64,000 nt of DNA from Erodium maritimum (lineage: Eukaryota; Streptophyta; Magnoliopsida; Geraniales; Geraniaceae), in contig OY997591.1 in the NCBI GenBank assembly GCA_963921825.1, positions 34,555,825 through 34,619,824 on the forward strand. The letters run 5' to 3'. A program made the position numbers and the translations under genes. Shown here in pieces: positions 1-36,400 of the stretch (the stretch's first letter is position 1; every line of letters begins with the position of its first letter). Below the pieces are notes generated by a model, which did no database searches, was not told the origin of the DNA, and saw only the letters and a program-made list of their open reading frames with translations.

Positions 1-700
1 TTTGAGCGAAAGGTGCAAATTTTCATTAATCAAATTGTTTCAATACAAAAGAGTGCATCAGAGACTCTCTGACCACAAAGAATAGGGCAAGAACACTTAA
101 GAATGTTCGCCATTCTTTTCATAATAGAACCGTCCTCGACGGTATTGAATTGGTGCCCCATGGGCAAGGACAGAATATGGGTGGGGGGAACGGGGTACCA
201 GATATCAGAGACCTCGACGGTAATGGTGATGGTGGGAGGCAAAGCATCGTCTGGAGACCCCTCCCAGGGCCGGCCAGTCCTTGATGCTCCCCTCCCTAGG
301 AAAATTCTCGATTTTATGTTCAGTAGGCATGGCGACGACGGCTGCAGGGATGTCGACGTCTTCAAGTGGCTTGACAGTTGGTTGACGTCCTCGGTTGCTT
401 CTTCTCCAAGTAACTCCCTCCCTGCCTTCGTTCCTCCAAACCTAGTTGGCATCAGAAGCGGCGACGACGACGACTGCTTCAAGTGTGTCGGCGGCAGCAT
501 CAAGGACGACGGTTGTAGAGACGGAAACCCCCAGGGCAACGGGATCAGGCGCGCGTCAAGGGTGGCGACAACGACTGCAGAGACGTCGGCGGCGTCAGGC
601 GGCTTGAAGGTTTGTTGACGCCGAGGTGAGCCAGACGACATCCATCGGGTTTGCAGAGGGGGGACCGAACAGGATCGATAGACGCGTCGGTGTTGGTGGG
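1..700 (-). mobile_element. 3' part of a non-LTR-like repeat (copy A)
   Basis: Read on the minus strand, this block ends at the left window edge. Positions about 100-310 match two other places in the window (about 5640-5850 and 47660-47870), all in the same orientation. Shared stretches include GGAGGGGTCCCTA-like and TGGTACCCCGTTCCC-like segments. An ATG-started frame of 203 codons (641 down to 30) runs through it. Its last third resembles the frame in copy B in protein terms (WEGS..DALP, then WYPVPP). No known domain is visible. A LINE or LINE-derived origin is inferred from copy B, which has a T-tract at its left edge and candidate target duplications. The upper boundary near 700 is approximate. 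Confidence 0.4.
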
Positions 701-3738: not shown

Positions 3739-4995
3739 TTATCGTTCTGGCGGTGTCCAATTCGGCATTTCTGGAGGTTGCTCGTACAACAACTCCTCAT
3801 CCCTATACTCGTACTGGTCGCACTCATCCTCTACAATCATGTTGTGTAGAATGATGCAAGTGTGCATGATATCAACCAAAGTGTTTGGGCTCCAAGTCCG
3901 AGCGGGACGGGAAATGATGTGCCACCTTGCTTGAAGTACTCCAAAAGCCCTTTCAATATCTTTCCGAGCACCTTCTTGGCATTTAGCAAACAACTTCTCT
4001 TTGGGCTCGTAGGGATGCCGAATAGTCTTCATGAACCGTGCCCATGTTGGGTAAATGCCGTCCACCAAGTAATAAGGTCGGTCGTACCGATGGCCGTTGA
4101 TAACGTACTCCACAGATAGCTCATGCTCGTAGTAAGTGTCTTGGAATAAGTGGCTGTTGTTGAGGACGTTGATGTCGTTGTTCGAGCCAGCCATCCCAAA
4201 AAACGCATGCCAAATCCGTAAATCACGAGATGCTACAGCTTCAAGCATAACCGTCTTCTCCTTGTGGTGACTTCCCCGTCCATGGGCTCCTTGGTCTTTG
4301 GTTGGGCAGTTCTTCCACTTCCAATGCATGCAGTCAAGACTCCCCGTCATTCTGGGAAATCCTCGGTTGTACCCTTCTCGGAGTAAGTTGTCCATGTCAG
4401 CCGGTGTGGGTGTACGCTCATACTCGGCTCTGAATACCTCGATGATGGTCTTGCAAAACTTACGTAAACATCAAGTATGGTGCTTACCCCAATGTGCAGA
4501 GTTTCGTCCAATGAATCGACCGAGCACCCATACGCAAGCATCCGTATCGCGGTGGTGCACTTCTGTTCCATTGATAAGCCCGGCCGTGAGGCCGCGTCGG
4601 GCTTCAGAACGAAGTAATAGTCGTGTTCCTTTACCTTGTCCATAATCCGTTGAAAAAGTGGTCTGCACATACGGAACCGACGCCTAAACATATCAAGGTC
4701 ATATATGGGTTGATCAAAAAAATAGCTCCTCATTAATTGGTTGTGGGCTTCAGCACGACCTCTGTTAATCTCTCATCGCATTGGTTCACCGCGGACGGCC
4801 CTCTCGATCCTTGGCATTGCTCTCTGCATGCTCCTCTCAATCCTCAACCGGAGTCGTTGCTCAATTGGCCGCATTCGGGCTGCCATCTCCTCATATGTCG
4901 GCAGTTGGGCTTCCATCTCCTCATACGTCGGCATTCGGGAAGTCATCTCCTAATATGTCGGAACCTCAACGCGGACATAACCTCATCATCGGACA
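3739..4995 (-). pseudogene. PIF/Harbinger transposase (DDE superfamily), decayed
   Basis: The C-terminal 218 codons (4395-3739) show the plant Harbinger nuclease fold: GSLDCMHWKWKNCP, GSNNDINVL, YYLVDGIYP, KDIERAFGVLQARW and HTCIILHNMIVED. These supply the expected acidic residues. The N-terminal half lies in another frame (4733-4347: FRRRFRMCRPLFQRIMD, then LAYGCSVDSLDETLHIG). A one-base loss near 4465-4470 separates the halves. The likely original start is the ATG at 4995 (MSDDEVMSAL). Between it and 4733 there is at least one more frame change and two or more in-frame stops, so the gene is dead. Its N-terminal region repeats the motif PTYEEM. A TATAAATA box at 5079-5086 sits about 85 bp above the ATG. 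Confidence 0.85.
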
Positions 4996-5520: not shown

Positions 5521-7305
5521 CTTTTTTTGAATGATAAATTGCAATTATATTAATCATTAAGAACGATTACATTGAAATGTCTCGAGGAACATGTTCATCT
5601 ATCATGTAAGGTCAGTATAAGCGAACAGTGGTTCATTGACCTTTTTAGTACTAGAACCGTCATGGACGATATTGTGACACCCCATGGGAGTAGAAAGAAG
5701 GCTAGGAGGGGGAACGGGGTACCAGAGATCCTGAGGGACCTGGACAGTAGTAGTGGTGGTGAGAGGCAATGCATCTTCTAGGGACCCCTCCCAAGGCCAG
5801 TACCTGACGCTCCATTGATACCTCATTCCTCCAAGCTGGGCATCTCTCCCGCCTGTGAGATGACGTGCCAACTAGACGCAGGCACCAGCACCCACCATCC
5901 ATCAATAGTTGCGCTCCTCTGAACCCTTAGCGCCAAATTCTGCACAGCACGCGCTCCGAGGTGGTCGCAGCCACCACCTCCACTTCCACCCCACTCCCGC
6001 AATCGTAGGGCAGCAATCGAATCAGCAGAGAGCTGATCTCCACCAGGCCCTCGTCGGATGTTCCCATGTACAAGCTCTTGCGTAGGACCACCCAGGGAGG
6101 TTTATCGTGGGCCTTAGGTCGGTATCCCAGGTGAGGGCTCGAGGATCCAGGTTAGGTACCAGGTCCATTGTTACCCTAGTCCCCATCCCCCAAGATGACC
6201 GCGCCTTAGGTATCGGGTCCATTGTCACCAGGGGTGGGGCATCCCGTGCCTGCCCCCAACCCAAATCCTCACCAACTCCACTAGCCCCTCCGAAGGACCA
6301 CGAAAGCATCCCATCCGGGCGCCTGACGCGAGGGAGATACCCTCGTGCCGCATTGGAGTGCAGTAGTGGAGAGCCACCATCCCCACCAGCGGCGGCATGG
6401 CCGGTTCCGCTAGATGGTATTCAAACCCGTCTCCGCCTCCGTGCCCATCCACGCCGAACGAACATGGAGAAGACTTCCACCATGCTCCTTATCACCCTAT
6501 AGCAGTCGGAAACCAAGCGTTGAAACCGGGTTTTCAACAGTGTGACCGAGGAGAATGTCGAGGTCTCTGTCACGTCCTGAAGCATCCCCTCTTGCACGAA
6601 ACGAGGGGGGCAACCACTGGACACGCAACTCCACGCTGTGTCCCCGTTAACCCGTCTACCAGAGCAAGGTTGTGGTGATCCCGGGGAGACGGGTTATGGT
6701 TCGGTTCATGGTGCGGTACTCCATGGCGTGAGGTTGAAGGCATCCGACCCCCCTCGCGCCAGTGCAGCACGCATTACGGCACCGTGCTACGGAGGCGGGG
6801 ATGGGACAAAATACTTGACTGACGTCGGCCAGGGAAATCCTTGAGGCCTAGAGAGCCCTGGTGGTCCCAAAGAGGCCAAATCAGGGTCCGACGAGAGGCT
6901 CGATAGGGGAGGTAAGGGCGATACGCGCGGAAGGGGAGGCGCACGCGATAGTGGAGGCGACATGCTCTCCGGAGCAGGGAGGCCAGACGACACCAGTGAA
7001 AGGTTTTGGGGATTGACTGCGGCCGGGTCGAGAGGCGACGAGACAACGAGGGGGGGGGGGGGCGGAGAAGCGAAGATGTCGAGGTTTGTGGAATACTCCT
7101 CCATTCCCATCTGTATTTAATCCTTGCACCAGGTGTGGTCTGTGATGATGTCGGTTGGATGGGATAGGCGAAAATAGGGACTGCAAAACCGACAATTTCA
7201 GGCGGCGCAGCAGCGGTGATGGTAGATGGAAGCTCCATAGCGGCTAGGGTAGACTAGGGCTAGGGTAGGCTCTCAAGGCTCGAGAGAGTATATTTTTTAG
7301 ACTCG
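5521..7305 (-). mobile_element. Non-LTR (LINE-like) element, degraded (copy B)
   Basis: On the minus strand its 3' end is an A-tract (T-run at 5522-5528). Candidate target duplications TAAATGTT flank it (left near 5513-5520, right near 7306-7313), an inexact and short match. The 3' part (5640-5850) is shared with copies A and C. The 5' end has an ATG at 7238 followed by proline-rich frames (ASPPPPPLVV, then DPAAVNPQN), as in many plant LINE ORF1 N-termini, but frames switch often and I cannot identify a domain. No reverse transcriptase or endonuclease motif is visible anywhere in 1.8 kb. Classification is inferred from the tail and the duplication only. Confidence 0.4.
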
Positions 7306-7480
7306 TTAAATGTTGTTCTTAATTGAACACGGAGAACTATTGTTTTTGTAAATTCACTTATAAGAGCATGTTCACCGTGTAGTGGTTCAAGTTCTTTAAA
7401 ACTGTTTTGAATTTTATGTTGAGGAATTGATGTCTAGGTTTATGTGTTTAAATTTGTTGATTTTCATACTGTAGAGATCT

Positions 7481-9317
7481 CTTTTTTATCAGCTAAAATA
7501 AGCATTTTATTCAACCAAAACAATACATTCTAAAGGAGAATTACAATCGAGGGAAGAAGAGAGGAAACAAGAAGGGAGCAGGCGAGGGTCCACTAGATAA
7601 GGGCTTGATACGCTTTGCTAGTAACCTTATCATTCATCGAAGAAGTGAAACCTAACGACTTGCAAAGAGCCCAAACCCTTTTAGCCTCAGATTATTTCCG
7701 GAATGAGCGAGAGGGACTAACATCTTTGCGGGCCTTTAAATGCTTAAGACGACTATTTTTAAGTGTTTATTCTTCCATTTGGGGCGAGGAAGAAGCGAGT
7801 CAACATCAAGCATAGGCGAATCGATCTTAGCAATAAAAGAGGAGAAATAGGAGTCTACCGCCGCTGGAGAGGAGGGCTTGTGAGCATCCACAAAATTAAC
7901 CAGTTGACTAAGGCCTTGGCCCAACCCGCATGGGCCATCACTGGAAGGGCCGACCCAGGGAGAGGGCCGACAGACCCAAACGAGAGGGAATCAGATAGAT
8001 GGATCTTCTAAGGGGTGTCGAGGGAATTGGGAACAGAGGGTCGCGTCTTGGAATTAGAAGAGTCGTGCGTCTTGAAAGAAGAGTCGCGCGTCTTGGAACT
8101 CACAGCACGTCGAGCCTTGGCGGAGGAAGGATCGAGGTTGAAGGGAGAAATTGGCGGCGAGCGACGATGCAATCTAAATTGGGAAGTCGGCGATGTTGGG
8201 AAAGAATCGAGGGGATCGGAGGAAATGCCAAGGCCATCTTCTGAACAATTAGCCCAAGTTCTCTATCCTCGAGATCGCAATCCTCAGGAATAAGGGGATG
8301 AGGGTTAGAGGGAACCAAATGGGGCTCCAGTCCTGAGACCAAGGTTTCAAAGTAGGATCCCTCCACTTCAAGATTAACCTTCAAGTTTTCCTGAACCAGG
8401 TGTCGAGTAAAGGCGACCCCATAAGCCTTGTCAAGTCTCTTGAAAGAGGAAGAACAGGGGTGAACAACGATGGGGATCCCAACAGTTGCTGCAATATTTT
8501 GGATAGAAGTAGTGGACCAACCGGAAAAGGGAATCCCAATAATCAAGAGCCACCTGAAGCAACATCCATCAAGAACGGAGTTAACGGCCGGGAAGAATTC
8601 AATGAACCAAAGGCGCAGCTCCGGCCATTTATTTTCCTCAGAGGATTTTAAGGACGAGAGATCCTTGAACGTGATCAGAAAAGATCTGTAGCCAAGGTCC
8701 GCTAGCTTGATCGACGATTGCAGATAAGGAGGGAATTCTTCCCAGATGGAAGTCGTGGATTAACATCTAGTCGCAACTCCGATAACTGAGGTTTTGAGAA
8801 TGGCCGAGAAAAAAGGATTGGGGGATCCAGTGCATGCTAAGTCTAGTTTAGAGTCGACGAGAGAAATGGTTGACGCCTGAGAACCGGAAACCACGTCCTT
8901 GAAGGAGGGACAAGCTAAAGAGAGACGAGCTAAGGAAGCATGAGGGCGTCCTTCAAAAGGGGTCGTGATCGAGGTAAGAGCAGGTCGAGAGCGAGCAGGG
9001 CCCATTGAGTAATCCACAATCAGGCGAGAGGATCCTTGGAGAGTGCGATAAAGAGCTGATGTTGCCGAAGAAGCTATCTCCACATTGGAGAAGAAGACAA
9101 AGCCAAATTTCTTACCGGAGCGAGAGAGCGAAGACGGGAGAAGAGCTCGGTTAACCTGACCGAAGGCAATGAAGAGGGCAAAGAGCTTCTCTTGAATGAA
9201 GTCCAGGGGTATGTTGCAGACAAAGAGACAGGAGGATGGAGAGTTTGCCTGAGGAGAGGTTGGAGGGAGAGGGGGAGAGGAAGGTTCAAGAGGTTCCATC
9301 TTCTTCCTTATCACCAC
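7481..9317 (-). mobile_element. ORF1-only LINE-derived element
   Basis: The minus-strand element ends in a short A-tract (T-run 7482-7487). It is flanked by degenerate 14-bp duplications: TACTGTAGAGATCT (7467-7480) and TACTGTAAGGTTCT (9318-9331), 11 of 14 matching. Its whole 1.84 kb is filled by an ORF1-type protein gene that begins almost at the 5' end. There is no endonuclease or reverse transcriptase. It is inserted inside the PIF-like element. Confidence 0.6.
7593..9299 (-). pseudogene. LINE ORF1 with RNA recognition motif, degraded
   Basis: The start is taken as the ATG at 9299 (MEPLEPSSPPLPP). Upstream GTG codons in frame are less likely. An RRM follows: RNP2-like LFVCNI near residue 25 and RNP1-like KKFGFVFF near residue 62. 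Such RRMs mark the ORF1 of plant L1-type LINEs and bind the element RNA. The first frame ends at 8760. A second conserved block (IGIPFSGWSTTSIQNIA, then DKAYGVAFTRH) lies at 8546-8350 in another frame, and the C-terminus (RVWALCKSLGF, then SKAYQALI and stop at 7593-7595) in another. At least two or three breaks separate these blocks, so it is a pseudogene. Confidence 0.65.
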
Positions 9318-10078
9318 TACTGTAAGGTTCTTTATAGAGTTTTTAGGGATACTTGTCGACTAATGGGATGATTAATATTATTTCTTTGAATTATTTAAAT
9401 ATAAAAATAAAACAAAAATCTAATTAAAAAACAGGTAAATAATATCGACTAGTGAATAATATGCATAGAGAATATATTGCGCCCATGTATGGTTACGGCT
9501 AAAAATACGGTTGCGCGTACAGGTTTGGGACCATACTAGACTGCATGTACAAGTTGTGGCTTATAGGTTGGTTGATGTGTAACATACGTTGAAACCCCCC
9601 AGGCTGCTTTGCATTGGAATAGTCTGGAATCATATTTCGAATATAGTCGTCGCCAGATATTTTTTAGCGGGGATGAAGGCTTAGAACAAGTTTTTGAGCT
9701 AGAGATATTTAAGATGAAGAGATATTGTGGATGGAATGATGATGTGAGGTGTTGATATTTATAGATTTTCAATTTAGACTATTATTAAACATTAAACATT
9801 TATTGAAAAACAAAAACAAAACAATTTTAGTCGTTGGAGCCAACGACTTTTTTTCCTTTCAAATCAACTGCCGCATGGCGCCTCACCAGGGCTGGTTGGG
9901 GATCGAGAATCGCTTGGTTCGGTGCCCTATAGGGAACAAAACTATGTAGTGTCGGATCCTGGTTCCTTAAATAAGAACTCGAACCACGCATCCTCCCCCT
10001 CACACCGTGGGCTCCTCAATACCCGTTCCTCGAGTCGGGGAATCGATGCCCAATCTGAGCAAGATGTACATGCTCTAA

Positions 10079-11825
10079 GATAAATTTTACACTAACGCAT
10101 ATACTTCAAAATATATATGATACTGTTTTTGAAAGACAAATGAATATATAATGATCTTACCTTCGAAATGTAGAAAAAAGTAAAAGGGTTGACGAATTAG
10201 CACACTTATTACAAAATAAATAAATTGGTATAATGTTAACCCTTACACGAACAAAGGCTAAAAAGCCAATCACAGATAATGAGTCTAATATATCCTATAC
10301 CCAGATATTCCATCCATGAAGTAAACACCACCGTTTAACATGAGTTCGATAATCAAGAAGAACTACATAGAACATCGGATCATGATATTCTGGTAATATA
10401 CAAGCGTAAGTAAATTCTATACTAGTGAAATCTCGTCTCACACTAGATCAAATCATGGATAGCTCCAAACATCAACCTACATAGCGCACACAACAATCAT
10501 AAATCCCCAAATCGTCCGGTCGGCTTGAAACACACAAGAGAATCGAGAAAACACTTCTACCATATTTATATCTCGTCAATTGAAAATCAAGACATGTGAA
10601 TGTCGGAAATCCTAGATAAGTTCATTAAATAGCTAAAGTTTTCATTTTTACCAACTCTAACCTAGAACTTGATATACACCCAAGATATGAAATAGCTAGC
10701 ACATGAAATCGGGTTTTAAAATCATGAAAGTTCGACACACAAAGTAAGAAAATCATGCGTGAACATCATTTAGCTTAAATATAGACAAATACCCATACAA
10801 CCAAGTGGATGCTAATTAAACTCAAAAGACCCAAATCATGTAAATAACATCACTAAACTAAAATTAACCATAAACCCTTGCATCAATGTAAAAGAAATCA
10901 AGATTTACACAACACCTATGACCAACGTTTGAAATCCAAGGTCATGCATTCCAAATACTACTCAAGCATATCAAAAATCCTAGTTTTATAACAAAATAGA
11001 GAAGAATAGATATTAGAACCGTGATTGGGTTGAAAAACCCAATAAAAAAACTATTCTAGCTTGCAAACCCATCATCTCCAACTCCCTAAAGCTTCAACCC
11101 ATGAAAATAGAGATGGTGGGAGGCTCATGGATGGTTAAAAGTTCCTTTTATAACCAAAAATATGGCCTCAAATGATATATTTTCTCTAAAAAATGAAGAA
11201 CACTGAAGAAAAAAACAGAGGAGAAGAAGAAAAAATAAAATAAAATGTTCAAATTAATATTTTTTTATGAAAAATCTGGTATGGAATCCTCAAAACAAAT
11301 CCAAACTATCCTATATATAAGCTATAATTAAATGAAAAATAAAATGGTGCTTCAAATTAATGTGACGCGAATGATCTGGTGCGGCGTACTCACGAGAATC
11401 ACATGGAACCAGACACCTCGTCCATTCGATCGCGTGGGCAGAAGATCCATGGCTGAGAAAAGAAGTCAACTTATACGAAATAAACAGCCGGATCTGGTCT
11501 CCTGCACACTCATCTCATCCAAGAGCCAGGGAATGAGCGAACGCACAATAGGTCATGGTGCTGCACCACACTGGATTTGTTTTGGAGCATATTTTTTCAC
11601 TTTTTATTTTACGCTTGAAATGCTCCATTTGTGCTCCGGTTGACCTCGTTCTTGCACCAATATTTTTCTTTTTTCGCGGCCTACAAAACTAGACCAATGA
11701 TGAATATATTTAGAACCCTTGAAATTGTCTACTAAGAACGAGGTTTTGCGTAATTATTAAATAATTCTAAAAATATAAAAACTAGGTACAAACATGGTAA
11801 AAATATGGCGGGTAATGGTCTAATT
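10079..11825. other. AT-rich non-coding DNA, probable LTR
   Basis: No gene is visible on either strand. On the minus strand a TATAAAAGG-like box near 11150 precedes about 1 kb of AT-rich sequence, as expected for an LTR promoter plus transcribed part. I assign it tentatively to the 3' LTR of the Tat-like remnant. Confidence 0.35.
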
Positions 11826-11840
11826 AACTAGGACAAATTT

Positions 11841-14237
11841 TTGGTTAAATATTTAACACAGAAAAAAAAAACGCTCTGAAAACCCTCTCGGGTGCTTACA
11901 TACCCTCCTAGGGTTTCCACATTTTCTACCTCCATTTTCACCCATGGCCGCCCGCCGCCCAGGCTCACCAATCGTCGTTGATTCCTTAATCCCGTCCCCG
12001 ACCTCATTTCGTCCTGCTCCTCTCTTTGCATCGACGGTCTTCTCCTCCCGGCGTCAACTCTGTGGCAGTCGTTCTCGTGTCGAGCTCTCCTCGTCCGCCC
12101 GAGCGCGCGCCGTCTCCACAACGAGCCCCGGTCACGCCCCTGTCAGTTCTTCAACAGATATGTCGTCCACCGGTCCCATTTGCTCGGAAATGGAAGGTAA
12201 CGACCATATCCAATCCATTGAGACTCGTCCATAGTCCCAGTCCCCAGCTCCGGCGAACTTCCTGCCTGAGGTATTCTTCCCGGCGCCCTCTCATATTATA
12301 TCTCGTCGTCCAACAGAACAGGGTCGGCCCACGGGTAACCTGTCCTCTTGGAAGGACAAACCAGGCGGGGTCCCGACAAGGATCGTTGCCATTCTACGGT
12401 CGCAGCCACCAGCGCATCCTCGAGGAAGCCGGCCGGAGTCGCCATCGGTCCACACTGATCAGCCGCCGGTCTCTCAGCCTCGGTCGCCGGTGGCGGGGTC
12501 CTAGCACCGCCCCTTAGTAAGTCTGACAACGGGGTCGTCCAGCCGATCGACAAGTGGGATTGGAGAGAGCTCGGTCCGTATTGCTCCGGTCCTGGACTGG
12601 GAGGAAAAAGATGATTAAGTGGTGGTCCCGGTGGAGGCGGTCCTGACGATCAAAAAGGGGACCTACCAGTTCTCACTGGCGGGCCGGGTCGCATGAAATC
12701 GGAACCATAACCAGAATGCGGTCTGCGCGATGATGCTGCATAAATTGAAGGTAGACGGCATTCAGGTTGAGTTCCTGTCCCCGGAGGTCACTGGTTATCA
12801 TTTCCCATCTACTGCAACGATGGAGAATATCCGACATCGGGGGCCCTGGATTTTCAAGTGATATCCAGTGCTTCTGGAACCCCTCAGGCCGTACATTCAG
12901 GTGCAGGAGATTGAATTTAATCACATTGAGCTGGGTGTCCGTGCCATGAACGTCCCGTCAGGGGTCAGAACCCCGGAGATCCGGAGTCTTATTGCTGCTA
13001 ATATTTGGGTCCAGGTGATGTCGGCTCCTATTCCGTTTGTCCGTCGGGAGGACATGTTTCTATGGCTGCGGGTACGGATGGAGCTGAACCAACCTCTTCG
13101 ACAACGCCTCCGCCTTCGGTTCCCGGACACGGTTACCTCCTCACTGATTGAGTTTCAATATGAAAGGCTCACAGATCTTTGTCGCAGGTGTGGGAGGATG
13201 ACACACCGGATTACGGGGTGCACGTTGAACTTACTAGGAATAGGTCGGGAGGAGGTCCGTTATGACGCTACGATCATGGTGCCAAGGCAATTGGATGTGG
13301 ATAGGTTGCTGAAGACCGTATGGCCTGCCTCCCTTTCCCGGGAACCGGTGGATATGGATGATCTCCTGAATGGGCTCTCACTGAACCCTATAGTCCGTTC
13401 TAGGGAGATCGTCATGGGGGATGGCTTTTCTACAGTAGACGTTCTGTCGAAGTCTGACGATCTGGCTAAGACTACCTCAGGAGGGGTGGTCATTTGTTTA
13501 CAGGATGGAGAGGACCGGGATTGTGGAGGACCACCGGGGTTTACAAAGCCTGACAATCTGGCTAACATCCACCGTGCTGGAAACCCTCCTTTCTCTGACG
13601 AACCCGAAGACACCTCAGAGACTCGGGTAGGGAAGGAGAAAGACCCCAAGGAAGTTTCGGGGAATGCTGACCCCATTCGAGGGAAGGGTAAGAGATCTAC
13701 ACTGCACACAAGGAGCGGGTCGTTGTATGCTCGCCCGCCGGGGGAGAAGAAGTCGCGGGATCACCTGGTCCCTCCTCTAGACTTCACCCAGCTAACCAGC
13801 ATTGTAGGGGACCAAGAGAAGAAGGCGGAGGCAGTACAACCTCCAATGCAGGAATGATTCGACCCGGTAGGGGTGAGGGAGCAGATGGCGGACTATACCC
13901 ACAAACCCGGGATAGCCAGTGTTGGGTGGTCCCGGGCAGCCTGCATCAACAACTCATCTTTTTTATCTGCTTTCTTATTCTCTGCTTTATTTCTGGAACA
14001 ATTTATCATTTCTTTTGGTTATGTACTTTTATTTTCTGTCTTACTGTTTTGAGACGATGGTAAGGAGTTGTCTTGAGTGTTTGCCAACGATTACAAGTAG
14101 GCTATTATTATGGGTCCATGAGCACTGGACTTGCTACGGTCGGTCCAGACACATGTCTGGAACCCTGGGCGTTTACGCCCTCCCTTGTTTGATTACCTTT
14201 GGGTATTAATACTATCTCTGGTTACCCGTTTAAAAAA
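11841..14237 (+). mobile_element. ORF1-only LINE-derived element with exact target duplications
   Basis: Flanked by an exact 15-bp duplication AACTAGGACAAATTT (11826-11840 and 14238-14252), with an A-tail at 14232-14239. The 3' end reads TTGATTACCTTTGGGTATTAA, then a short A-run, typical of plant L1-type LINEs. The 2.4-kb body holds one ORF1-type gene followed by about 380 bp of 3' UTR. No endonuclease or reverse transcriptase is present. The exact duplication makes it younger than the 7481 copy. It is inserted into the LTR of the Tat-like remnant. Confidence 0.8.
11944..13857 (+). pseudogene. LINE ORF1 (DUF4283-like region plus CCHC knuckle), broken
   Basis: The ATG at 11944 opens a Ser/Pro/Arg-rich N-terminus (MAARRPGSPIVVDSL). 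The best-preserved part is 12862-13857. It has a DUF4283-like segment (GPWIFK at its start, then LEPLRPYIQVQEIEFNHIEL) and a CCHC knuckle (C-X2-C-X4-H-X4-C) at 13180-13221: CRRCGRMTHRITGC. A long charged C-terminus follows. Such proteins are the nucleic-acid-binding ORF1 product of plant LINEs. An in-frame TGA at 12859-12861 lies inside the DUF4283-like region, where Trp is expected, and the N-terminal part is split over frames, so the gene is broken. Confidence 0.7.
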
Positions 14238-14277
14238 AACTAGGACAAATTTACGCTCATCAAGTTCCCACGCACTT

Positions 14278-24993: not shown

Positions 24994-27900
24994 TTAATAC
25001 CCTAATGAAACGAAGCGGGTTTTACAATCTACCCCCCTTAAAGGAATTTCGCCCACGAAATTTAAAACAGGCGTACCTTGGGAAACGAATAGGGCGGGAT
25101 ACTTCGCGCGAATCTCGTCCTCGCGCTCCCAAGTTGATTCAGCTCCGTGGTGCTTCCACTGTACTCGTACCAAGTGGATAATCTTGCCTCCCCGCAGAAT
25201 CTGCTCCCGCGTATCCATAATCCGAATCGGCTGCTCCTCATAGGAGACATCATCAGCAATCTCGATATCTGTCCACTCAATGACGTGGGAGGGGTCTGCA
25301 TTGTACTGCCGCAACTGAGACACGTGGAAGACGTTATGGACTCTCCCAAGTTGCGGTGGCAACGCCAGACGATAAGCCACTGTTCCCACTCTGCCCAAAA
25401 TCTGGAACGGGCCAATGTATCTCGGAGCCAACTTGCCCCCGCTTCGCCTGAACCGCACCAGCCCCTTCCTCGGGCTCACCTTCAGGAACACGTGATCCCC
25501 GACTGCAAACTCAAGGGGTCGACGTCGCCTGTCGGCATAACTCTTCTGTCGGCTCTGTGCTGTCCTCAGCCGATCGCGGATCAGTGCGACTTTCTCCGTC
25601 GTCTCTCTGACAAGATCTGGCCCCAGCAGACTCTTGTCCCCCACCTCTGCCCAGCACACTGGTGACTGACACGGCCTCCCATACAACGCTTCGAAAGGTG
25701 CCATCCCGATACTGGCTTGGAAGCTGTTGTTGTAGGCGAACTCGGCCAACGGCAGGTGGGTCTCCCAAGATCCCCTGAAATCCAGTACACATGCTCGCAG
25801 CATGTCCTCTAAGATCTGAATGGTACGCTCCGACTGACCGTCTGTCTGAGGATGATGCGCTGTACTGAGTAGCACCTCGGTCCCCAATGCCTTCTGCAAA
25901 CTCGGCCAAAACCTGGACGTGAAGCGGGGATCCCTGTCAGACACTATCGACACCGGGACCCCGTGGAGACGCACTATCTCCTGAACGTACAAACTGCTCA
26001 ACTTGTCCACTGGGTCGGTCATCCTCATAGCCAGGAAGTGGGCCGACTTAGTCAACCGGTCGACTACCACCCACACGGCGTCGTTTCCCTTGGGTGATCT
26101 CGGTAGTCCACACACGAAGTCCATCGTAATGTGTTCCCACTTCCACTGAGCAATCGGTAGTGGCTGTAACAATCCCGCTGGACGCTGATGCTCGGCCTTC
26201 ACCTGCTGACAGACAAGGCATCTCGACACAAACTCTGCGACTGCTCTCCTCATACCGCGCCACCAGTAGTGCCGTCTGAGGTCACGGTACATCTTGGTGC
26301 CCCCCGGATGCACTGTGAGACGCGAATGGTGTGCCTCTCGTAACACGGCGTCTCTACAGTTAACCGGTACGAACAGCCCCCCGCGGTATCGTAGTCCCCA
26401 GTCAGTGCTGTCCTGCCAGCCCACCACCTCGTCACCCCTGACGACTCTCTCGCGTATCTCTGATGCTTCGACGTCCTCTGTCTGCGCCTCCAGCACTTGG
26501 GCAAGCAGTGAGGGCTGAGCCACTAGTGAGCACATGGCAACACCGCCAGTAACCTCCTCTAGCTCAAGCCCGAACGTGCTCAGCTCCCCCATCATGCCCC
26601 ACTCTCGGACAGATATGCTGGCGAGGCTCGGAGCCGACTTCCTACTCAAGGCGTCGGCGACAACGTTCGCCTTGCCTGGGTGGTAGTGTAGCTCGAAGTC
26701 GTACTCCTCGAGTAGTTCCATCCACCGTCGCTGACGCATATTCAGGTCTCGCTGGGAAAATATGTACTTGAGGCTCTTGTGATCCGAGAACACCTGAAAC
26801 CCCTCGCCGTACAGATAATATCGCCAGCTCTTCAGTGCAAACACGACTGCTGCTAGCTCCAAGTCGTGGGTTGGATAGTTGCGCTCGTGTATCTTCAACT
26901 GCCTGGAGCCATAAGCCACAACTCTGCCCGACTGCATCAGCACGCAGCCCAGTCCCTCTCCGGACGCATCGCAGTAAACATCATAACCAATTCCTCGCTC
27001 GGGCACCACTAACACTGGAGCTGTAGTCAGCCGAGTCTTCAGCTCCGCGAACGCACGCTCACAGTCGTTTGTCCACACGAACCCGACACCCTTGCGCGTC
27101 AACAGAGTCATCGGTGCGGCTAGTCGTGCAAAATCTTGGACAAATCGCCTATAGTAGCCTGCCAATCCCAGAAAGCTGCGGATCTCGAAAACACTCGTGG
27201 GCCGTGCCCACTTCGAGACCGCGTCGACCTTCGACGGATCGACCAGGATACCGTCACGGGATACAATGTGGCCGAGGAACCTCACCTCAGAGAGCCAGAA
27301 CCCGCACTTCTCCCGGTTGGCATATAGCTGATGTTTGCGCAGCAGTGTTAGCACAGCCCTCAGATGGGCCTTATGCGCTGCCTCGTTCTGCGAATATATC
27401 AGGATGTCATCCACAAATACCACCACAAACTGATCTAGGTACGGCCGGAAGATGCTGTTCATCAGGTCCATGAACGCTGCTGGCGCGTTCGTCAGTCCGA
27501 ATGGCATCACTAGGAACTCGTAGTGCCCATAGCGTGTCCGGAATGCAGTCTTTGCGACGTCTCCCTCACGGACTCGCAACTGATAATAACCGGATCGCAG
27601 ATCGATCTTCGAGAAGTGAGTCGCCCCTCTCAACTGGTCGAACAAGTCGTCGATCCTCGGCATCGGGTACCGGTTCTTCACCGTAACCCGGTTTAGCTTC
27701 CGGTAATCTATACACATCCGTAGCTCTCCACTCTTCTTCTTCACGAAGAGTGCTGGTGCTCCCCACGGCGATGTACTCGGACGGATAAACCCCTTCTGCT
27801 GAAGCTCCCCCAGCTGACGCTTCAGCTCAGTCAACTCGGCCGGTGCAAACCTGTAAGGCGCCATCGATATCGCCGCCGTTCCCGGCACTAGGTCAATCCC

Positions 27901-29784
27901 GAACTCCACCTCACGAATCGGTGGCAGCCCGCTCAACTCCTCAGGAAAGACCTCGGGGAACTCGCATACCACTCTCGGTAACTCTCGGCTCTGCACAGCC
28001 GGTACTTCCTCCTCTGCGGACAACGCCGACAGGAGGACCCCACTCTTGCTTCCCAGCACGCACGTCACCTTCGTACCGCCCACTGTCACTGTCACTCGTC
28101 GTCTATAGCAATCGATGTTGGCTCGGTACCTCGACAGCCAATCCATACCCAAAATCACATCAAAGGTAGTCATCCCTAACACGAGAAGATCCCCAGGGCA
28201 AGGACAGTCTGCGACTCTAATCTCGCAGGCACGACATACTCTAGTCAACGATGCACCACCCCCAACTGGGGTGTCCAGACATAGAGGTGGGCTCAACGGC
28301 TCTAAGCTCAACCCCAACCTCTCGGCACAACTCGACGAAATAAAAGAGTGCGACGCCCCGGTATCAAACAAGAATAAAGCCCATAAGTGATACAATAAAC
28401 ACGTACCCTGGATGGTCTCGCGGTACGTGCTAGTTCCTGGGGCTCTAGAGTCGGTGACTGCATAGACTCTCCCCTGCGAGGCCTGCTGCCTCTGACCCGG
28501 CGCGCTGGCCGCTGAATACCCGTGACTCTGCTGCTGTCTCGGAACCGGTGCGCTCGTAGAAGGCTGTGACGGTCTGGACTGCTGACCCTGACGAGGACGT
28601 CCCCTGGGCGACTGTACGGTCCGCGACTGCTGCGGTCGCTGCGCTGATGTTGCCCTCGACGGCTCACGGCACCATGCAATGGTGTGCCCAACCTGGCCGC
28701 ATCGAAAACAGCTGATCTCGTTGGCTCTCAACTCCGTGCCCTGGCTGGTCCGGCTGGTCGCTGGCCGCGCCGTAGGTACTCCTTCCATCGGGCACTCGCG
28801 CCGGAAGTGGCCTTGCTGCCCGCAAGTAAAGCACGCCGGCGCCCTCTCTGGTGCGACTGGCCCAACTGCTGCCACTGAACCCCGCTGTCTCGATCCACTC
28901 TGATGAGGCGGTGGTCGGAAGGATCCCGCGGTCCTTTGCCTCCGCGAGTCTCGTGAGTCTGACGGTCCGGTCCAACTGATCGGTCGAGGTCGGACCTCAC
29001 GGCCCCTGGCTGCATCCCGGATGCCCTGCTCCACTGTAGCCGCGGTGTCCACTAGATCGGTATACTTCCGTATCCTCAAGGCGAGAACCTGGTTCCGGAT
29101 GCCCAGCCTCAGTCCGTCCTGGAACCGTAGGCAACGGTTCGTCTCGCTCGACACCATCTCAGGCGCGAATCTGGCCAAGGCTGTGAACCTGGCCTCGTAC
29201 TGTGCCACTGTCATCTCTCCCTGCTCCAGGTATAAGAACTGCCGATGTCGCTCCAGCCGAGCCGACTCGGGAAAGTACTGTGCCATGAATACCTCCTGGA
29301 ATACGCTGTAGTTGTATCCGACTGTGTCCTTCACCCGCCCCCACCAGTGGTAGGCGCTGTCTCTCAGCTGATGGGCCGCGAAGGACACTCTCCGACGGCC
29401 ATCCTCGACACCCAAAGTGTCCAGGTCTCGTGTGACCTGCTCTATCCATCGCTCGGCTAGGTCGGGATTTGGCTCCCCGACAAAAACAGGTATCCCGAGC
29501 TTCAGGAAATCGAGTAGCGCTCGGGAGGTAAGATCCTCTGTCTGAGCGGCCCTCATCGGAACTGCGACTGCCTCTGGTGCTGGCGAAGCCGACTCTCGGC
29601 TGGCGATGACCGCCACTAAACTCTGAACGGTCCTGGTAAGCTCATCCAGGGCAGTCATCACTGGAGGGTCCGCGACTGGCGGAACACTGGGGGTACCTGC
29701 AGATGGCCCCGCATCACTTCTCCCGTCTCCTCCGACGGGAGTGCCCTGTGCCTCCGCGTAGTCGGCGGGCTCGACGACTGGCAC
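24994..29784 (-). CDS. Gypsy gag-pol reading frame, copy 1
   Basis: One frame of about 1,596 codons. Rough residue positions: gag domain 110-235; two CCHC knuckles near 321 and 361 ([28 protein letters not shown]); aspartic protease [12 protein letters not shown] near 474; reverse transcriptase 640-810 with FVDDILIYS near 788; RNase H from about 935 ([13 protein letters not shown]); integrase zinc finger ending CLVCQQVK near 1188; integrase core from about 1205; and a chromodomain-like C-terminus near 1530-1575 ([20 protein letters not shown]). The polyprotein would build the particle and carry out reverse transcription and integration. Such C-terminal chromodomains are known to steer integration to heterochromatin. 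The frame runs through the purine tract into the LTR. Confidence 0.85.
25027..25043 (-). other. Gypsy polypurine tract, copy 1
   Basis: Minus strand: CTTTAAGGGGGGTAGAT immediately before the 3' LTR (TGTAAAACC). The same tract lies at the comparable place in copy 2 (33472-33488). Confidence 0.8.
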
Positions 29785-30531
29785 CCTCCCTGGTGCCCCT
29801 GCTGATCGCCCCCGCCGGCCTCACGTGGGTGCATGACCCTGCGTTCCTGATGCTCGTCCGCGCCTTCCGCGAGCCATGAACAGTATCCTCTGCACGGATA
29901 CACGCAAACGTTCAGTTTGCGAACTCAAATAAAGGCGACAAGTTCAAAAACGCCAACGCTCACACGGTCTAAGTTTACTCTATCGCGTATGTCACTAAGG
30001 CGCCACACCGCTCAAGCTAAACATACCTTATATATAGTATTAGTATACGAGACCACACCGACATATACCACACAAGCGACGACAAACCAACCAGAGTCGA
30101 ACCTTGCCCACCGGGCCAACCAAAATCGAACATACGCCTACAGGGCCAAACAAGTTCAAGACTTGCCAAACGGGCCAACAACCTTAACCCTTTTCCGCTT
30201 CATAAAAAAAAAACCTCATTTCTTGGCCTCAGGTGGTTACAACCCCGTCCAGGCGTCCCCGAACTACGTTGTGTGGCCACTTGATACCAACACCGTCACG
30301 CTCGACCACAGGAGCGCTCCTTAGTCGAGTCGCGACAGTTTAAAAACGTTTCACGCAGCAACACACAAACATTGTGCCAGTAGCCCCGTACTGCACAAGC
30401 ACAAACAAACAGGACTCAAATCCTAACGGGTCTACACCCGAGTTCCGACTTGCGTACCCCACGCAGGACGGGACTCTACCGACTCGACTCTCCCACCTAA
30501 TTGACGTGTAGTCCGAGGTGTGAAACCTCGC
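29785..30531 (-). other. Gypsy leader, copy 1
   Basis: Untranslated leader between primer-binding site and gag. It contains short repeats of the form GGGCCAACC near 30100-30180. These are related to the tandem GGCCCGGTGGGCG motifs in the gypsy at 49951. Confidence 0.6.
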
Positions 30532-30543
30532 GCTCTGATACCA
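30532..30543 (-). other. Gypsy primer-binding site, copy 1
   Basis: TGGTATCAGAGC on the minus strand, three bases inside LTR 2. It matches initiator Met tRNA. The equivalent in copy 2 is 38977-38988. Confidence 0.9.
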
Positions 30544-30546
30544 AGC

Positions 30547-33471
30547 TGTCACGCCCCAATTTCAGCGAACCGAAACTAGGGACGCGAACGTTTAAAAAGT
30601 TACAAGACTGAAACCTGTTTTCGATAAATCACCTAAAAAGTCAGTTTAGTTCCACAAAAGAATAAAAAAAAAAAATTACACCTCAAAAGAAAAGTCCCAC
30701 ACTTGGGCAAACCGAGATACACGTCTCTAGACTCAAACACCCAGCAACCCGCTTCAAGCTCTTCAAGCTTCAGAAGCTCACCTAGTCCAGACTACGAACG
30801 GTACCTGTAGGAAAAGCAGCTAGGGGTGAGCGTTCGCTCACCACCACAGATAACATACTGACTACGGCATAATTAGTAGACAAAGCCAATGACACTAACA
30901 ACGACTCAAAGACACACACACGACCAGTCTTTTCCTCAACTGACTCAACACTCGGATACGTTATGTAGACCCCACACTACGATCGACGACCTCCTCCAAG
31001 ACACGACTGACCATACAATACCAAACAAGATCACAAAGGATCGCAAACCGGCTGCTCAGTAACCAATCTCTGTCTCTCGCCCTTTACCGATCATAGACGT
31101 GGTCAGGCGGTCGACCTGTCGCGCAACTTCTCCCGATCCCAGTCGGGAGGCTAACCCACAACCTCTCCGCTTCACCCGATCCCAGTCGGGTGGTTAGCCA
31201 CACCCGCGCGTCCTTCCCCCGATCCCAGTCGGGGAGCTAGCCCACAACCCCTCCGCTTCTCCCGATCCCAGTCGGGAGGCTAGCTACACCACACAACCTC
31301 CACCAGCAACCAGTAACCAATCACAAACACAAACAAGTTCAAACAGACAGTAACGACACCGGTGACAGTTCCACAGGCACTCAAGGCCAACAAAACACCG
31401 ACAACCAAACACAGGTTCAACCATCCTACGGGCCCTCATGGTCACCCAAGACACCAACGATAAAGTACGGGTTCAAACTCCACGGGCACTCACGGCCACC
31501 AAAACACCAAAACGACAACACGGGCTCTCATGGCCACCCCAAACTCAACAATGAATAAAACGGGCTCTCAAGGCCACCCAAACTCAATCAACAATTAACG
31601 CACAACAACCTCCGGGCATGGTCATATGCCTCCAGTAACACAGTTAACGCTAAGTTTTCTGCTCCTACGACACTACTAAGTGTCACATGCATTTCCAGTA
31701 TTCGTTACATTCCCGTATCATGCGTTTCTAATAGTCGATAACCTAAATAACCCACGACACCCCGGTGTCACATGCAATTCTACAGTTAACTTTCCCTAGT
31801 CAGGGCCGAGATCCGGCTACTTTTCCCTACCTCGAAAGCAACTCCAGAAGCGCTCCACTAAACCCGAGATGAAACGCAGTCACTCGCCGAGCCTCCCTTT
31901 GCCTCGGTCCGCAGCACGATCTAAAAGAACACAGATTTAACTCACTTTAAACTAGTACGAACCGGTCGAAAATAAATAACTCAACGCCCAAGTTAATAAC
32001 GGTTCCGCCGTTAAGTTAACGGCTACGATTTGTCCATTTTAAACTTGACAGTTGTCGTTTACACTCGAGCGGGATAAAAGTCGGGTTACGACGGATCGGG
32101 TTCGAGCACCCGCGCACCGAACCCAGGTTTGATCTAAACCCAGTTTAAACCCCTTTTTAACTTAAAACCGTCGTTGAACACCCTTGCTTTAATTAATTTC
32201 GTCTTTGATTTTAAAACAAAACGGTTTCCTTCCGTTCGTTTCCAAACTCGATATTTTGGTCCGGAACCCTTATAAAGTCGATTTGATTTCGTTTCCCCCC
32301 TTTTTGATTTAACTTAACTCGAGTCTAACTTTAATAAACGACTTTCGTTTTAAAACCCGTTAAACTTAACCCGACCTAGTTTTAACGATAACGATTTTCT
32401 TTAGGTCCGAACGATAAGGATCTAACATTTATTCTAAAGTCGATTTTCAATTTACAACCAGTTTTAATCCTTCCTTTTTCACCCTTAACAGATCAAAACA
32501 AACGTAAATGACATAATAATAACTTAAAAATTTGTGTTCTTCGTTACAGAATCTTTACACTTCAGAATTACAATAACCCAACAATCCTTCAACAAACCGA
32601 GATCCCATTTCTGGTTCTGTTCCTTTCCATTTCCAAAGTCCCATTCCGTCCCAACCAGATCCAGAACAGAGCGTTCTATCACCGATCGGATCTGAATGGA
32701 CTCGGGAAAGGGAGAATAAGAGAAGAGGGACGAGCTCGGTTTTGGTCCGGCCGACCACCGGCGATGCCGTTATCGGCCGAAGTTCCACAGGCCGAGAACT
32801 CACCGTACCGACACGGTGGAGACGGTGGAGAGTGGCGGTGTACGGCTCGGGTCCGGACGACTCGTCTCGTTCCGGGTCCGACGAGCTCGCCGGTGACGGC
32901 GGGAGCTCGGTTCGCGTTCGGGTGAAGGGGAGGCGATGTTCGGTCGGAGTTTGGTGAGGAAGACGAAGGAAAGAGAGACAGGGAGGTCGGAGACGGGAAA
33001 CGGGGCGGTGACACGTTAGGGTTTCGGGACGGAACCGATGGTGAACAGCCGGGTTTTTGGACGGAGACGGTGAGATGGGTCGGAAGATGAAGGGGAAGGA
33101 TGGGACGAGGGTTGAGAGGGGTGTGGAGGCCGGAAACGGCGGTGGCCGGTGCTGGTTCGGCGGAGAAGACGAAGGAGGAGAGGGAGTGAGGTCGAGAGAA
33201 TCGAAGGGTAGAGAGAGGGAGGCTGCGGCGTGTTCTGATGCTGAAACCCTAGGGTTTCAGCTTATATCAGACACGCTGGGCCGAGCCCTCTTGGGCCTCA
33301 GTCGAAGAACGGGCCTAAGGCCCAAACGGCTGGTTGGCCGAAACAGGCCTGGCCTGTCCATTTTTTTTTTGTTTTTTTTTTTTTTTTTTGCTTCACCACT
33401 TGTTTCAAACATCAACCCTACAGTTTTCGGGTTTTAAATTAATACCCTAATGAAACGAAGCGGGTTTTACA
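30547..33471 (-). repeat. Gypsy LTR 2 (shared between the two interiors)
   Basis: 2,925 bp. It serves as 5' LTR of the interior on its left and 3' LTR of the one on its right. It differs from LTR 1 by a few substitutions and A/T-run lengths. Confidence 0.9.
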
Positions 33472-36400
33472 ATCTACCCCCCTTAAAGGAATTTCGCCCA
33501 CGAAATTTAAAACAGGCGTACCTTGGGAAACGAATAGGGCGGGATACTTCGCGCGAATCTCGTCCTCGCGCTCCCAAGTTGATTCAGCTCCGTGGTGCTT
33601 CCACTGTACTCGTACCAAGTGGATAATCTTGCCTCCCCGCAGAATCTGCTCCCGCGTATCCATAATCCGAATCGGCTGCTCCTCATAGGAGACATCATCA
33701 GCAATCTCGATATCTGTCCACTCAATGACGTGGGAGGGGTCTGCATTGTACTGCCGCAACTGAGACACGTGGAAGACGTTATGGACTCTCCCAAGTTGCG
33801 GTGGCAACGCCAGACGATAAGCCACTGTTCCCACTCTGCCCAAAATCTGGAACGGGCCAATGTATCTCGGAGCCAACTTGCCCCCGCTTCGCCTGAACCG
33901 CACCAGCCCCTTCCTCGGGCTCACCTTCAGGAACACGTGATCCCCGACTGCAAACTCAAGGGGTCGACGTCGCCTGTCGGCATAACTCTTCTGTCGGCTC
34001 TGTGCTGTCCTCAGCCGATCGCGGATCAGTGCGACTTTCTCCGTCGTCTCTCTGACAAGATCTGGCCCCAGCAGACTCTTGTCCCCCACCTCTGCCCAGC
34101 ACACTGGTGACTGACACGGCCTCCCATACAACGCTTCGAAAGGTGCCATCCCGATACTGGCTTGGAAGCTGTTGTTGTAGGCGAACTCGGCCAACGGCAG
34201 GTGGGTCTCCCAAGATCCCCTGAAATCCAGTACACATGCTCGCAGCATGTCCTCTAAGATCTGAATGGTACGCTCCGACTGACCGTCTGTCTGAGGATGA
34301 TGCGCTGTACTGAGTAGCACCTCGGTCCCCAATGCCTTCTGCAAACTCGGCCAAAACCTGGACGTGAAGCGGGGATCCCTGTCAGACACTATCGACACCG
34401 GGACCCCGTGGAGACGCACTATCTCCTGAACGTACAAACTGCTCAACTTGTCCACTGGGTCGGTCATCCTCATAGCCAGGAAGTGGGCCGACTTAGTCAA
34501 CCGGTCGACTACCACCCACACGGCGTCGTTTCCCTTGGGTGATCTCGGTAGTCCACACACGAAGTCCATCGTAATGTGTTCCCACTTCCACTGAGCAATC
34601 GGTAGTGGCTGTAACAATCCCGCTGGACGCTGATGCTCGGCCTTCACCTGCTGACAGACAAGGCATCTCGACACAAACTCTGCGACTGCTCTCCTCATAC
34701 CGCGCCACCAGTAGTGCCGTCTGAGGTCACGGTACATCTTGGTGCCCCCCGGATGCACTGTGAGACGCGAATGGTGTGCCTCTCGTAACACGGCGTCTCT
34801 ACAGTTAACCGGTACGAACAGCCCCCCGCGGTATCGTAGTCCCCAGTCAGTGCTGTCCTGCCAGCCCACCACCTCGTCACCCCTGACGACTCTCTCGCGT
34901 ATCTCTGATGCTTCGACGTCCTCTGTCTGCGCCTCCAGCACTTGGGCAAGCAGTGAGGGCTGAGCCACTAGTGAGCACATGGCAACACCGCCAGTAACCT
35001 CCTCTAGCTCAAGCCCGAACGTGCTCAGCTCCCCCATCATGCCCCACTCTCGGACAGATATGCTGGCGAGGCTCGGAGCCGACTTCCTACTCAAGGCGTC
35101 GGCGACAACGTTCGCCTTGCCTGGGTGGTAGTGTAGCTCGAAGTCGTACTCCTCGAGTAGTTCCATCCACCGTCGCTGACGCATATTCAGGTCTCGCTGG
35201 GAAAATATGTACTTGAGGCTCTTGTGATCCGAGAACACCTGAAACCCCTCGCCGTACAGATAATATCGCCAGCTCTTCAGTGCAAACACGACTGCTGCTA
35301 GCTCCAAGTCGTGGGTTGGATAGTTGCGCTCGTGTATCTTCAACTGCCTGGAGCCATAAGCCACAACTCTGCCCGACTGCATCAGCACGCAGCCCAGTCC
35401 CTCTCCGGACGCATCGCAGTAAACATCATAACCAATTCCTCGCTCGGGCACCACTAACACTGGAGCTGTAGTCAGCCGAGTCTTCAGCTCCGCGAACGCA
35501 CGCTCACAGTCGTTTGTCCACACGAACCCGACACCCTTGCGCGTCAACAGAGTCATCGGTGCGGCTAGTCGTGCAAAATCTTGGACAAATCGCCTATAGT
35601 AGCCTGCCAATCCCAGAAAGCTGCGGATCTCGAAAACACTCGTGGGCCGTGCCCACTTCGAGACCGCGTCGACCTTCGACGGATCGACCAGGATACCGTC
35701 ACGGGATACAATGTGGCCGAGGAACCTCACCTCAGAGAGCCAGAACCCGCACTTCTCCCGGTTGGCATATAGCTGATGTTTGCGCAGCAGTGTTAGCACA
35801 GCCCTCAGATGGGCCTTATGCGCTGCCTCGTTCTGCGAATATATCAGGATGTCATCCACAAATACCACCACAAACTGATCTAGGTACGGCCGGAAGATGC
35901 TGTTCATCAGGTCCATGAACGCTGCTGGCGCGTTCGTCAGTCCGAATGGCATCACTAGGAACTCGTAGTGCCCATAGCGTGTCCGGAATGCAGTCTTTGC
36001 GACGTCTCCCTCACGGACTCGCAACTGATAATAACCGGATCGCAGATCGATCTTCGAGAAGTGAGTCGCCCCTCTCAACTGGTCGAACAAGTCGTCGATC
36101 CTCGGCATCGGGTACCGGTTCTTCACCGTAACCCGGTTTAGCTTCCGGTAATCTATACACATCCGTAGCTCTCCACTCTTCTTCTTCACGAAGAGTGCTG
36201 GTGCTCCCCACGGCGATGTACTCGGACGGATAAACCCCTTCTGCTGAAGCTCCCCCAGCTGACGCTTCAGCTCAGTCAACTCGGCCGGTGCAAACCTGTA
36301 AGGCGCCATCGATATCGCCGCCGTTCCCGGCACTAGGTCAATCCCGAACTCCACCTCACGAATCGGTGGCAGCCCGCTCAACTCCTCAGGAAAGACCTCG

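What the first reader, a model, noticed from the sequence alone, without database searches (positions are those of the whole stretch)
7481..14237. ORF1-only LINE elements resembling 'half-L1' parasites
The insertions at 7481-9317 (RRM-type ORF1, 14-bp degenerate duplications) and 11841-14237 (CCHC-type ORF1, exact 15-bp duplications and A-tail) each hold an ORF1 gene that fills the element, and neither has endonuclease or reverse transcriptase. 5' truncation cannot produce this, since truncation removes ORF1 first. Mammals have ORF1-only L1 derivatives (HAL1). Two unrelated ORF1 types here suggest that ORF1-only LINEs arose more than once in this plant. The element at 5521-7305 may be a third.
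Basis: partly seen in the sequence, partly recalled or inferred. Interest (0 to 1): 0.7.

Follow-up and report, generated by a model that had tools for sequence, protein, structure and literature searches.

The report
ORF1-only LINE families in a plant
Two kinds of jumping element in this plant carry only the RNA-binding half of a LINE and have nevertheless spread to many places, which suggests they borrow the copying enzyme of other LINEs, as 'half-L1' elements do in mammals.

Summary
A (11841-14237, DUF4283 + CCHC ORF1) is a multicopy family: 37 of 40 scored copies reach the same 3' end without ORF2, 6 of 8 inspected have their own 10-16 bp target duplications, and the ORF1 core is under purifying selection (dN/dS 0.40; shifted frames 0.70, 1.04). 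B (7481-9317, RRM ORF1) belongs to a large clade: its ORF1 C-terminal motif has 474 places. Of the 100 listed, 40 run into a 3' end within about 400 bp, 60 are unresolved and none was seen with ORF2. Two relatives lie between exact 16-bp duplications; ORF1 is strongly constrained (0.15-0.28). C (5521-7305) is a multicopy retroposon without coding signature, so not ORF1-only. No full LINE with the A or B 3' end was found, so the helper is unidentified. Two-ORF L1s exist here (3 found). Unexpectedly, an abundant L1 lineage lacks ORF1: 20 scored copies start at one fixed 5' end about 460 bp before ORF2. ORF1-only and ORF2-only L1s thus coexist. HAL1 is the mammalian precedent; I found no plant report in the open library searched. 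Mutual help between the halves is untested.

The parts
11826..11840 (+). target-site duplication, 5' copy, of element A
   Evidence: exact 15-bp repeat AACTAGGACAAATTT
11841..14237 (+). element A: ORF1-only LINE (DUF4283 + zf-CCHC_4), no ORF2, A-tail
   Evidence: 37 of 40 scored places reach the same 3' end; Pfam; no ORF2 remnant
12556..13206 (+). conserved ORF1 core of A (aligned with L008 element positions 700-1341)
   Evidence: position from alignment; dN/dS 0.40, bootstrap 0.31-0.54; shifted frames 0.70 and 1.04; Pfam hits in L008 and L005
12868..13857 (+). longest ORF1 fragment of the window copy of A (329 aa) with the CCHC knuckle
14238..14252 (+). target-site duplication, 3' copy, of element A
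7467..7480 (.). degenerate duplication flanking the 3' end of element B
   Evidence: 11 of 14 identical to 9318-9331
7481..9317 (-). element B: ORF1-only LINE (RRM + part of DUF4283), no ORF2
   Evidence: relatives L015 and L016 are complete with exact 16-bp TSDs
8763..9317 (-). N-terminal ORF1 fragment of B with the RRM
   Evidence: PF00076 34.6 bits; RRM region of 5 copies dN/dS 0.28
8103..8546 (-). middle ORF1 fragment of B, DUF4283-like
   Evidence: PF14111 19 bits in the window copy, below cut-off; 27.9 bits, over the 27.2 cut-off, in relative L011
9318..9331 (.). degenerate duplication flanking the 5' end of element B
5521..7305 (-). element C: noncoding 1.8-kb retroposon, not ORF1-only
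   Evidence: 7 near-full-length places, window included, the other 6 at 79-87% identity; no coding signature; 8-bp duplication at 5513 and 7307

Best explanation
Elements A and B are members of two separate families of non-autonomous L1-type retrotransposons that keep a LINE ORF1 and a LINE-like 3' end but have no ORF2. The likely cycle: the element RNA is translated into ORF1 protein (DUF4283 + zinc knuckle in A, RRM + DUF4283 in B), which coats its own RNA. The endonuclease/reverse transcriptase of another L1 of this genome then copies that RNA at a nicked target, starting at the A-tail, and leaves 10-16 bp duplications. Shown here: multicopy status, shared ORF1/3'-end junction, target duplications, A-tails, absence of ORF2 in the copies read, and purifying selection on ORF1. 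Inferred: binding of its own RNA and supply of ORF2 protein in trans. The helper L1 was not identified.
For: A: 37 of 40 scored places reach query position 2391-2397; 14 span almost the whole element; identity 77-91% apart from the window copy itself (three separate 5' pieces, 71-72%). TSDs of 10-16 bp at 6 of 8 A loci. Of 76 exact A 3' ends, 20 that were not copies were read: 0 of 20 have ORF2 within the element part seen, and 9 of 20 have an exact repeat of 10-17 bp around a shorter derivative. B: 474 sites of the ORF1 C-terminal motif with up to 2 mismatches, reversed-pattern control 0. Of the 100 listed sites, chosen without regard to the tail, 40 are followed by a 3' end within about 400 bp. 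65 places match a C-terminus-to-3'-end junction pattern, control 0. L015 and L016 are complete, with exact 16-bp TSDs, 1.77 and 1.75 kb. Selection: A core dN/dS 0.40 (0.31-0.54); B C-terminus 0.15 (0.10-0.22), B RRM 0.28 (0.20-0.37), shifted frames 1.0-1.6 for B. No ORF2 remnant. Canonical two-ORF L1s exist in the same genome and were found by the same kind of lists.
Against: No full L1 with the A or B 3' end was found, so descent from, and dependence on, a given L1 is not shown. Low dN/dS would also arise if the source were an undetected full L1 or a host gene. 60 of 100 listed B motif sites remain unresolved and 374 were not listed. 12 of the 14 B 3' ends read were found with a query that contains ORF1, so they could not have shown ORF2 instead; of the 2 picked by tail alone one has ORF1 and one (L088) has neither ORF. 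An exact TSD was found at 2 of 5 B copies tested. One A copy (C1:85237857, minus strand) has about 3.2 kb of unread extra sequence between its ORF1 region and a 3' end. The copies whose frames were inspected are broken. Tails of A, B and the two L1 families are not significantly alike (best p 0.044 in 10 tests).
Confidence: 0.8

Rival explanations
1. The copies are dead retrocopies made repeatedly from a few full-length L1s (or from an ORF1-only transcript of them, for example by splicing or early polyadenylation); ORF1-only elements are not themselves masters.
For: The copies inspected are decayed; very low dN/dS in B is what an autonomous source would give. 5' ends of L015 and L016 lie within about 15 nt of the ORF1 start codon, leaving little room for a 5' promoter. 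Two A deletion derivatives (L069, L074) have different breakpoints, so some deletions arise singly.
Against: Copies about 70-94% alike carry the same junction. Three shorter derivatives of A share one deletion junction, and several have their own TSDs, as expected if elements without ORF2 act as masters. No full source was found.
Confidence: 0.25
2. B elements are processed pseudogenes of a host RRM gene.
For: RRM domains are common in host proteins (one search lists many); very short 5' UTR; A-tail and TSD fit retroposed mRNA.
Against: Part of the LINE ORF1 domain DUF4283 lies in the same protein; one fixed 3' end with a LINE-like AATAAA/A-tail layout across diverged copies; hundreds of copies; RRM-type ORF1 is published for plant L1 (BNR; seen only as a title in reference lists). 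No host gene search was made here.
Confidence: 0.07
3. Element 5521-7305 is a third ORF1-only LINE.
For: Same layout: A-tail, duplications in some copies, 1.8 kb, multicopy.
Against: No frame on either strand shows constraint in 7 full-length copies or in 10 copies over the 3' half; many stops; only a below-cut-off, implausible Pfam hit.
Confidence: 0.05

Closest known systems
HAL1 (half-L1) of mammals
   Same: Non-autonomous L1 derivative encoding only ORF1p; arose independently several times (PMC5753468, passages read; it cites Bao and Jurka 2010, not held).
   Different: Here the ORF1s are the plant types (DUF4283 + CCHC; RRM + DUF4283), two types occur in one genome, no parent L1 with the same ends was found, and shorter derivatives share the tail of A.
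Plant two-ORF L1, e.g. Celine of poplar
   Same: ORF1 with DUF4283, poly(A) tail, TSDs of 10-30 bp (PMC11288735, passages read).
   Different: Celine has ORF1 and ORF2 in one element; A and B lack ORF2.
BNR-type L1 with an RRM in ORF1 (Beta vulgaris)
   Same: RRM in ORF1 (title seen in reference lists only; paper not read).
   Different: BNR is described as a LINE family, with ORF2 from recall; no ORF2-bearing RRM element was seen here.
Plant SINEs sharing LINE 3' ends
   Same: Non-autonomous, LINE-type 3' end and A-tail; shared 3' ends of plant SINEs and L1s are described in PMC3747384 (passages read).
   Different: A and B encode a constrained protein and are 1.7-2.4 kb long.

Membership tests
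HAL1-like ORF1-only LINE | encodes L1-type ORF1 and no ORF2 | tested here: met
   Pfam; no ORF2 remnant
HAL1-like ORF1-only LINE | multicopy with a shared ORF1/3'-UTR junction | tested here: met
   A: 37 of 40; B: 65 places; 40 of 100 listed sites, 60 unresolved
HAL1-like ORF1-only LINE | LINE-type integration: A-tail and target-site duplications | tested here: met
   A 6 of 8 loci; B 2 of 5 exact, the window copy being degenerate
HAL1-like ORF1-only LINE | derived from an identifiable L1 sharing its ends | tested here: inconclusive
   no sharing with 30 zf-RVT loci except one weak hit of L013 on L060, nor with 3 two-ORF L1 tails; only part of the LINEs could be read
HAL1-like ORF1-only LINE | mobilised by ORF2 protein of another L1 | not testable with these tools
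   needs a retrotransposition assay
two-ORF plant L1 | endonuclease and reverse transcriptase in the same element | tested here: not met
SINE | short and noncoding | tested here: not met
   coding constraint in A and B
SINE | pol III promoter | not tested
   no search for A and B boxes was made
processed pseudogene | derived from a host gene mRNA | tested here: inconclusive
   host gene search not done; DUF4283 in B points to a LINE

The most novel reading that the evidence does not exclude
The L1 system of this plant has split: ORF2-only L1s (fixed 5' leader, constrained ORF2, no ORF1) and ORF1-only elements propagate as separate units, and the ORF1-only elements supply ORF1 protein in trans to ORF2-only L1s while taking ORF2 protein from them, a two-part retrotransposon.
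Probability: 0.12. Interest if true: 0.9.

Novelty: new variant of a known kind. Interest (0 to 1): 0.62.

Why it matters
It suggests that ORF1-only L1 parasites are not a mammalian peculiarity and can arise with quite different ORF1 proteins. Finding constrained ORF1-only families beside ORF1-less L1s in one genome offers a natural system for asking what ORF1 protein does, whether it acts on its own RNA, and whether an L1 can do without it. Standard annotation would probably label such copies as truncated LINEs or as DUF4283 genes.

Tried and rejected
Element C as a third ORF1-only LINE: rejected. Sharing of 3' ends between A, B, C and two L1 families: pairwise tail alignment against mononucleotide shuffles gave p 0.044-0.964 in 10 comparisons, nothing after correction. 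A common 3' hairpin: single-sequence folds differ between families and between copies of A, so I make no claim. Host-gene origin of B: judged unlikely, not searched. ORF1 upstream of the ORF2-only L1: A and B ORF1 proteins have no convincing hit in the 4 fetched loci L083-L086. The idea that the 79 B motif sites without a detected tail were full LINEs: two were read and both are ORF1-only (one of them is also among the 18 of 79 that fit the junction pattern); 60 of 100 stay open. A shared second deletion in L069 and L074, which I first assumed: not borne out, their 5' breakpoints differ. The notebook says 28 of 30 zf-RVT loci share one 3' end; recounted it is 26 of 30. It also calls that L1 family 'dominant'; I now say only 'abundant among those sampled'. 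Bao and Jurka 2010 and Smyshlyaev 2013 were not held.
Full report
SETTING. I call 11841-14237 element A, 7481-9317 element B (minus strand) and 5521-7305 element C (minus strand).

OBSERVATION. A lies between exact 15-bp duplications at 11826 and 14238 and ends in an A-tail. B lies between 14-bp sequences that agree at 11 of 14 positions. A carries a zf-CCHC_4 knuckle (43 bits); relatives L008 and L005 also carry DUF4283. B carries an RRM (35 bits; 60 bits in relative L015); DUF4283 matches weakly in the window copy (19 bits) and just over its cut-off in relative L011 (27.9 against 27.2). No part of a 1354-aa ORF2 from this genome matches A, B, C, L013, L015 or L016 at E<=10, while two control LINEs match strongly.

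ELEMENT A IS A FAMILY. A search with A scored 40 of 2669 first-look candidates. 37 of the 40 places, the window included, reach the same 3' end (query 2391-2397); 14 also start within 68 bases of the 5' end; identities are 77-91% apart from the window copy, with three separate 5' pieces at 71-72%. An exact repeat of 10-16 bp flanks 6 of the 8 inspected copies; L003 gave only a doubtful 8-mer and L008 none. A 3'-end pattern has 76 exact matches, control 0. I read about 1.4 kb at 20 of the 3' ends that were not copies. Within those 1.4 kb none shows ORF2 in the element by reading frames or by tblastx against the 30 L1 loci; one distant match in L065 lies about 870 bp upstream of its A-like part and outside the element as bounded by its 13-bp duplication. 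L072 and L080 show ORF1 and the A tail without a break; L064, L066 and L079 share one internal deletion junction (A about 648 joined to 1837); L069 and L074 have two other deletions with different 5' breakpoints; L065, L073, L075, L077 and L081 have another body on the same 230-base tail; the remaining eight are short, partial or mixed. Nine of the 20 have an exact repeat of 10-17 bases around a shorter element (the 10-mer of L073 is marginal). One further copy, C1:85237857 (minus strand), has about 3.2 kb of unread extra sequence before a 3' end.

ELEMENT B BELONGS TO A LARGE CLADE. Close copies are few, but related 3' ends are many: 78 matches to a 31-base tail with up to 2 mismatches, control 0. 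I read upstream of 14 B-type 3' ends: the window, L010-L020, L087 and L088. 13 have the ORF1 C-terminus directly upstream, L088 only a short tail; but 12 of these were found with a query that contains ORF1, so only L087 and L088 are unbiased (one of two). The better test starts from ORF1: its C-terminal motif has 474 places with up to 2 mismatches, control 0, of which 100 were listed. 21 of the 100 have a recorded 3' end 182-225 bases on, 18 more fit a C-terminus-to-3'-end pattern that has 65 places and control 0, and L092, from the remainder, was read and is also ORF1-only: 40 of 100. L093 was read too and agrees (it is one of the 18). 60 are unresolved. None of the 100 has a listed ORF2 start or zf-RVT within 6-8 kb downstream, though those capped lists mainly sample one L1 lineage. 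L015 and L016 are complete: 1770 and 1746 bases (A-tail included) between exact 16-base duplications, with the 5' end within about 15 bases of an ATG that opens ORF1; the same script found none at L013, L010 or the window copy, whose repeat is too degenerate for it.

SELECTION. Pairwise dN/dS (Nei-Gojobori; codons with gaps or stops skipped; mutation bias not modelled). A core: 0.40 (bootstrap 0.31-0.54), against 0.70 and 1.04 in shifted frames; the A N-terminal part (0.76), C-terminal part (0.65) and 3' UTR (0.55-0.83) show little or no constraint (10 sequences, and with another averaging). B C-terminus: 0.15 (0.10-0.22) against 1.63 and 1.36 (12 sequences). B RRM: 0.28 (0.20-0.37) against 1.01 and 1.49 (5 sequences). 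C: 0.55-1.03 in every window and frame of 7 copies, and 0.56-0.91 for 10 copies over the 3' half. So ORF1 of A and B was kept functional along the lines that produced the copies; C is noncoding.

WHERE IS ORF2? A zf-RVT search scored 150 of 12902 candidates and gave 30 loci. By their tails 26 of 30 end alike, unlike A, B or C. I read further upstream at four loci. In three (L083, L084, L086; the fourth, L085, shows host-like frames by eye) ORF2 begins 449-519 bases after a shared 5' motif, with no ORF1 in between. Two of these three, L084 and L086, are among the four loci whose own tail differs. A search with the L083 leader plus ORF2 start scored 40 of 483 candidates: 20 places, the query included, begin within the first 33 query bases and run on into ORF2; 11 of the 20 have a listed zf-RVT 3.48-3.79 kb on. 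The other 20 scored places have another or a truncated leader, and whether they have ORF1 is mostly unknown. A second leader type (L084) has 5 such copies, query included, and one interrupted. ORF2 is strongly constrained in 12 of the sampled loci (0.18 against 1.21 and 1.76 in shifted frames), at least 4 of which have an ORF1-less leader. L083 ORF2 has endonuclease, RVT_1, zf-RVT and RNase H-like domains. Canonical two-ORF L1s also exist: 3 of the 150 listed DUF4283 places (of 12439 candidates) have a listed zf-RVT 4.1-4.8 kb downstream; their tails have no blastn match to the loci held. None of the 40 A places lies within 9 kb upstream of a listed ORF2.

HOW IT MOST LIKELY WORKS. Element RNA makes ORF1 protein, which binds the RNA; an L1 ORF2 protein supplied in trans copies it at a nicked site. 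The integration marks, the junctions and the selection are shown; RNA binding, trans supply and the identity of the helper are inferred.

WHAT IS KNOWN. HAL1 of mammals encodes only ORF1p and arose several times (PMC5753468, passages); L1 likely provides the machinery (PMC4161310, passages). A review of land-plant elements says L1 has two ORFs and, in the passages I saw, names no ORF1-only class (PMC9033089). Four searches for plant ORF1-only, HAL1-like, ORF1-less or non-autonomous LINEs found no such report (27 and 62 each listed one paper on another subject), in an open-access library that lacks most subscription journals, so 'not in print' is not established.

VERDICT. The bolder reading, a split L1 whose halves help each other, is compatible with the data, but nothing here shows complementation and the ends do not match.

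Noticed in passing
L083:2271-6809; L084 and L086; coordinates: An abundant L1 lineage of this genome is ORF2-only: fixed 5' leader of about 450-520 bp, no ORF1, constrained ORF2, with at least two unalignable leader types joined to homologous ORF2.
   Followed up: partly
L064, L066, L069, L074, L079 and L065, L073, L075, L077, L081: A swarm of shorter derivatives shares the A 3' tail: three share one deletion junction, two have other deletions, five have a foreign body; several have their own target duplications.
   Followed up: partly
window 5521-7305; L022-L032: A noncoding 1.8-kb A-tailed retroposon family with 3292 first-look candidates in the genome; origin unknown.
   Followed up: partly
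window 24994-38229: Two identical 1596-aa gag-pol frames (0 differences over 4791 bases) with an 8445-bp period and further repeats near 22.7, 31.1 and 39.6 kb: looks like a tandem array of one LTR retrotransposon sharing LTRs.
   Followed up: partly
window 51636-52078 and 59891-60467: Two arrays of the same 57-bp tandem repeat unit about 8 kb apart.
   Followed up: no
window 3739-4733 (minus strand): Two ORFs that look like a Harbinger-type transposase (recalled, not searched).
   Followed up: no
window 30-641: Translation resembles the 3' part of the element C family; probably another fragment of it (seen by eye).
   Followed up: no
L003 (C7:15798952-15799296): A DUF4283 ORF1 of a different LINE lies about 0.4 kb downstream of an A copy, so A probably inserted beside or into the 5' part of another LINE.
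   Followed up: partly
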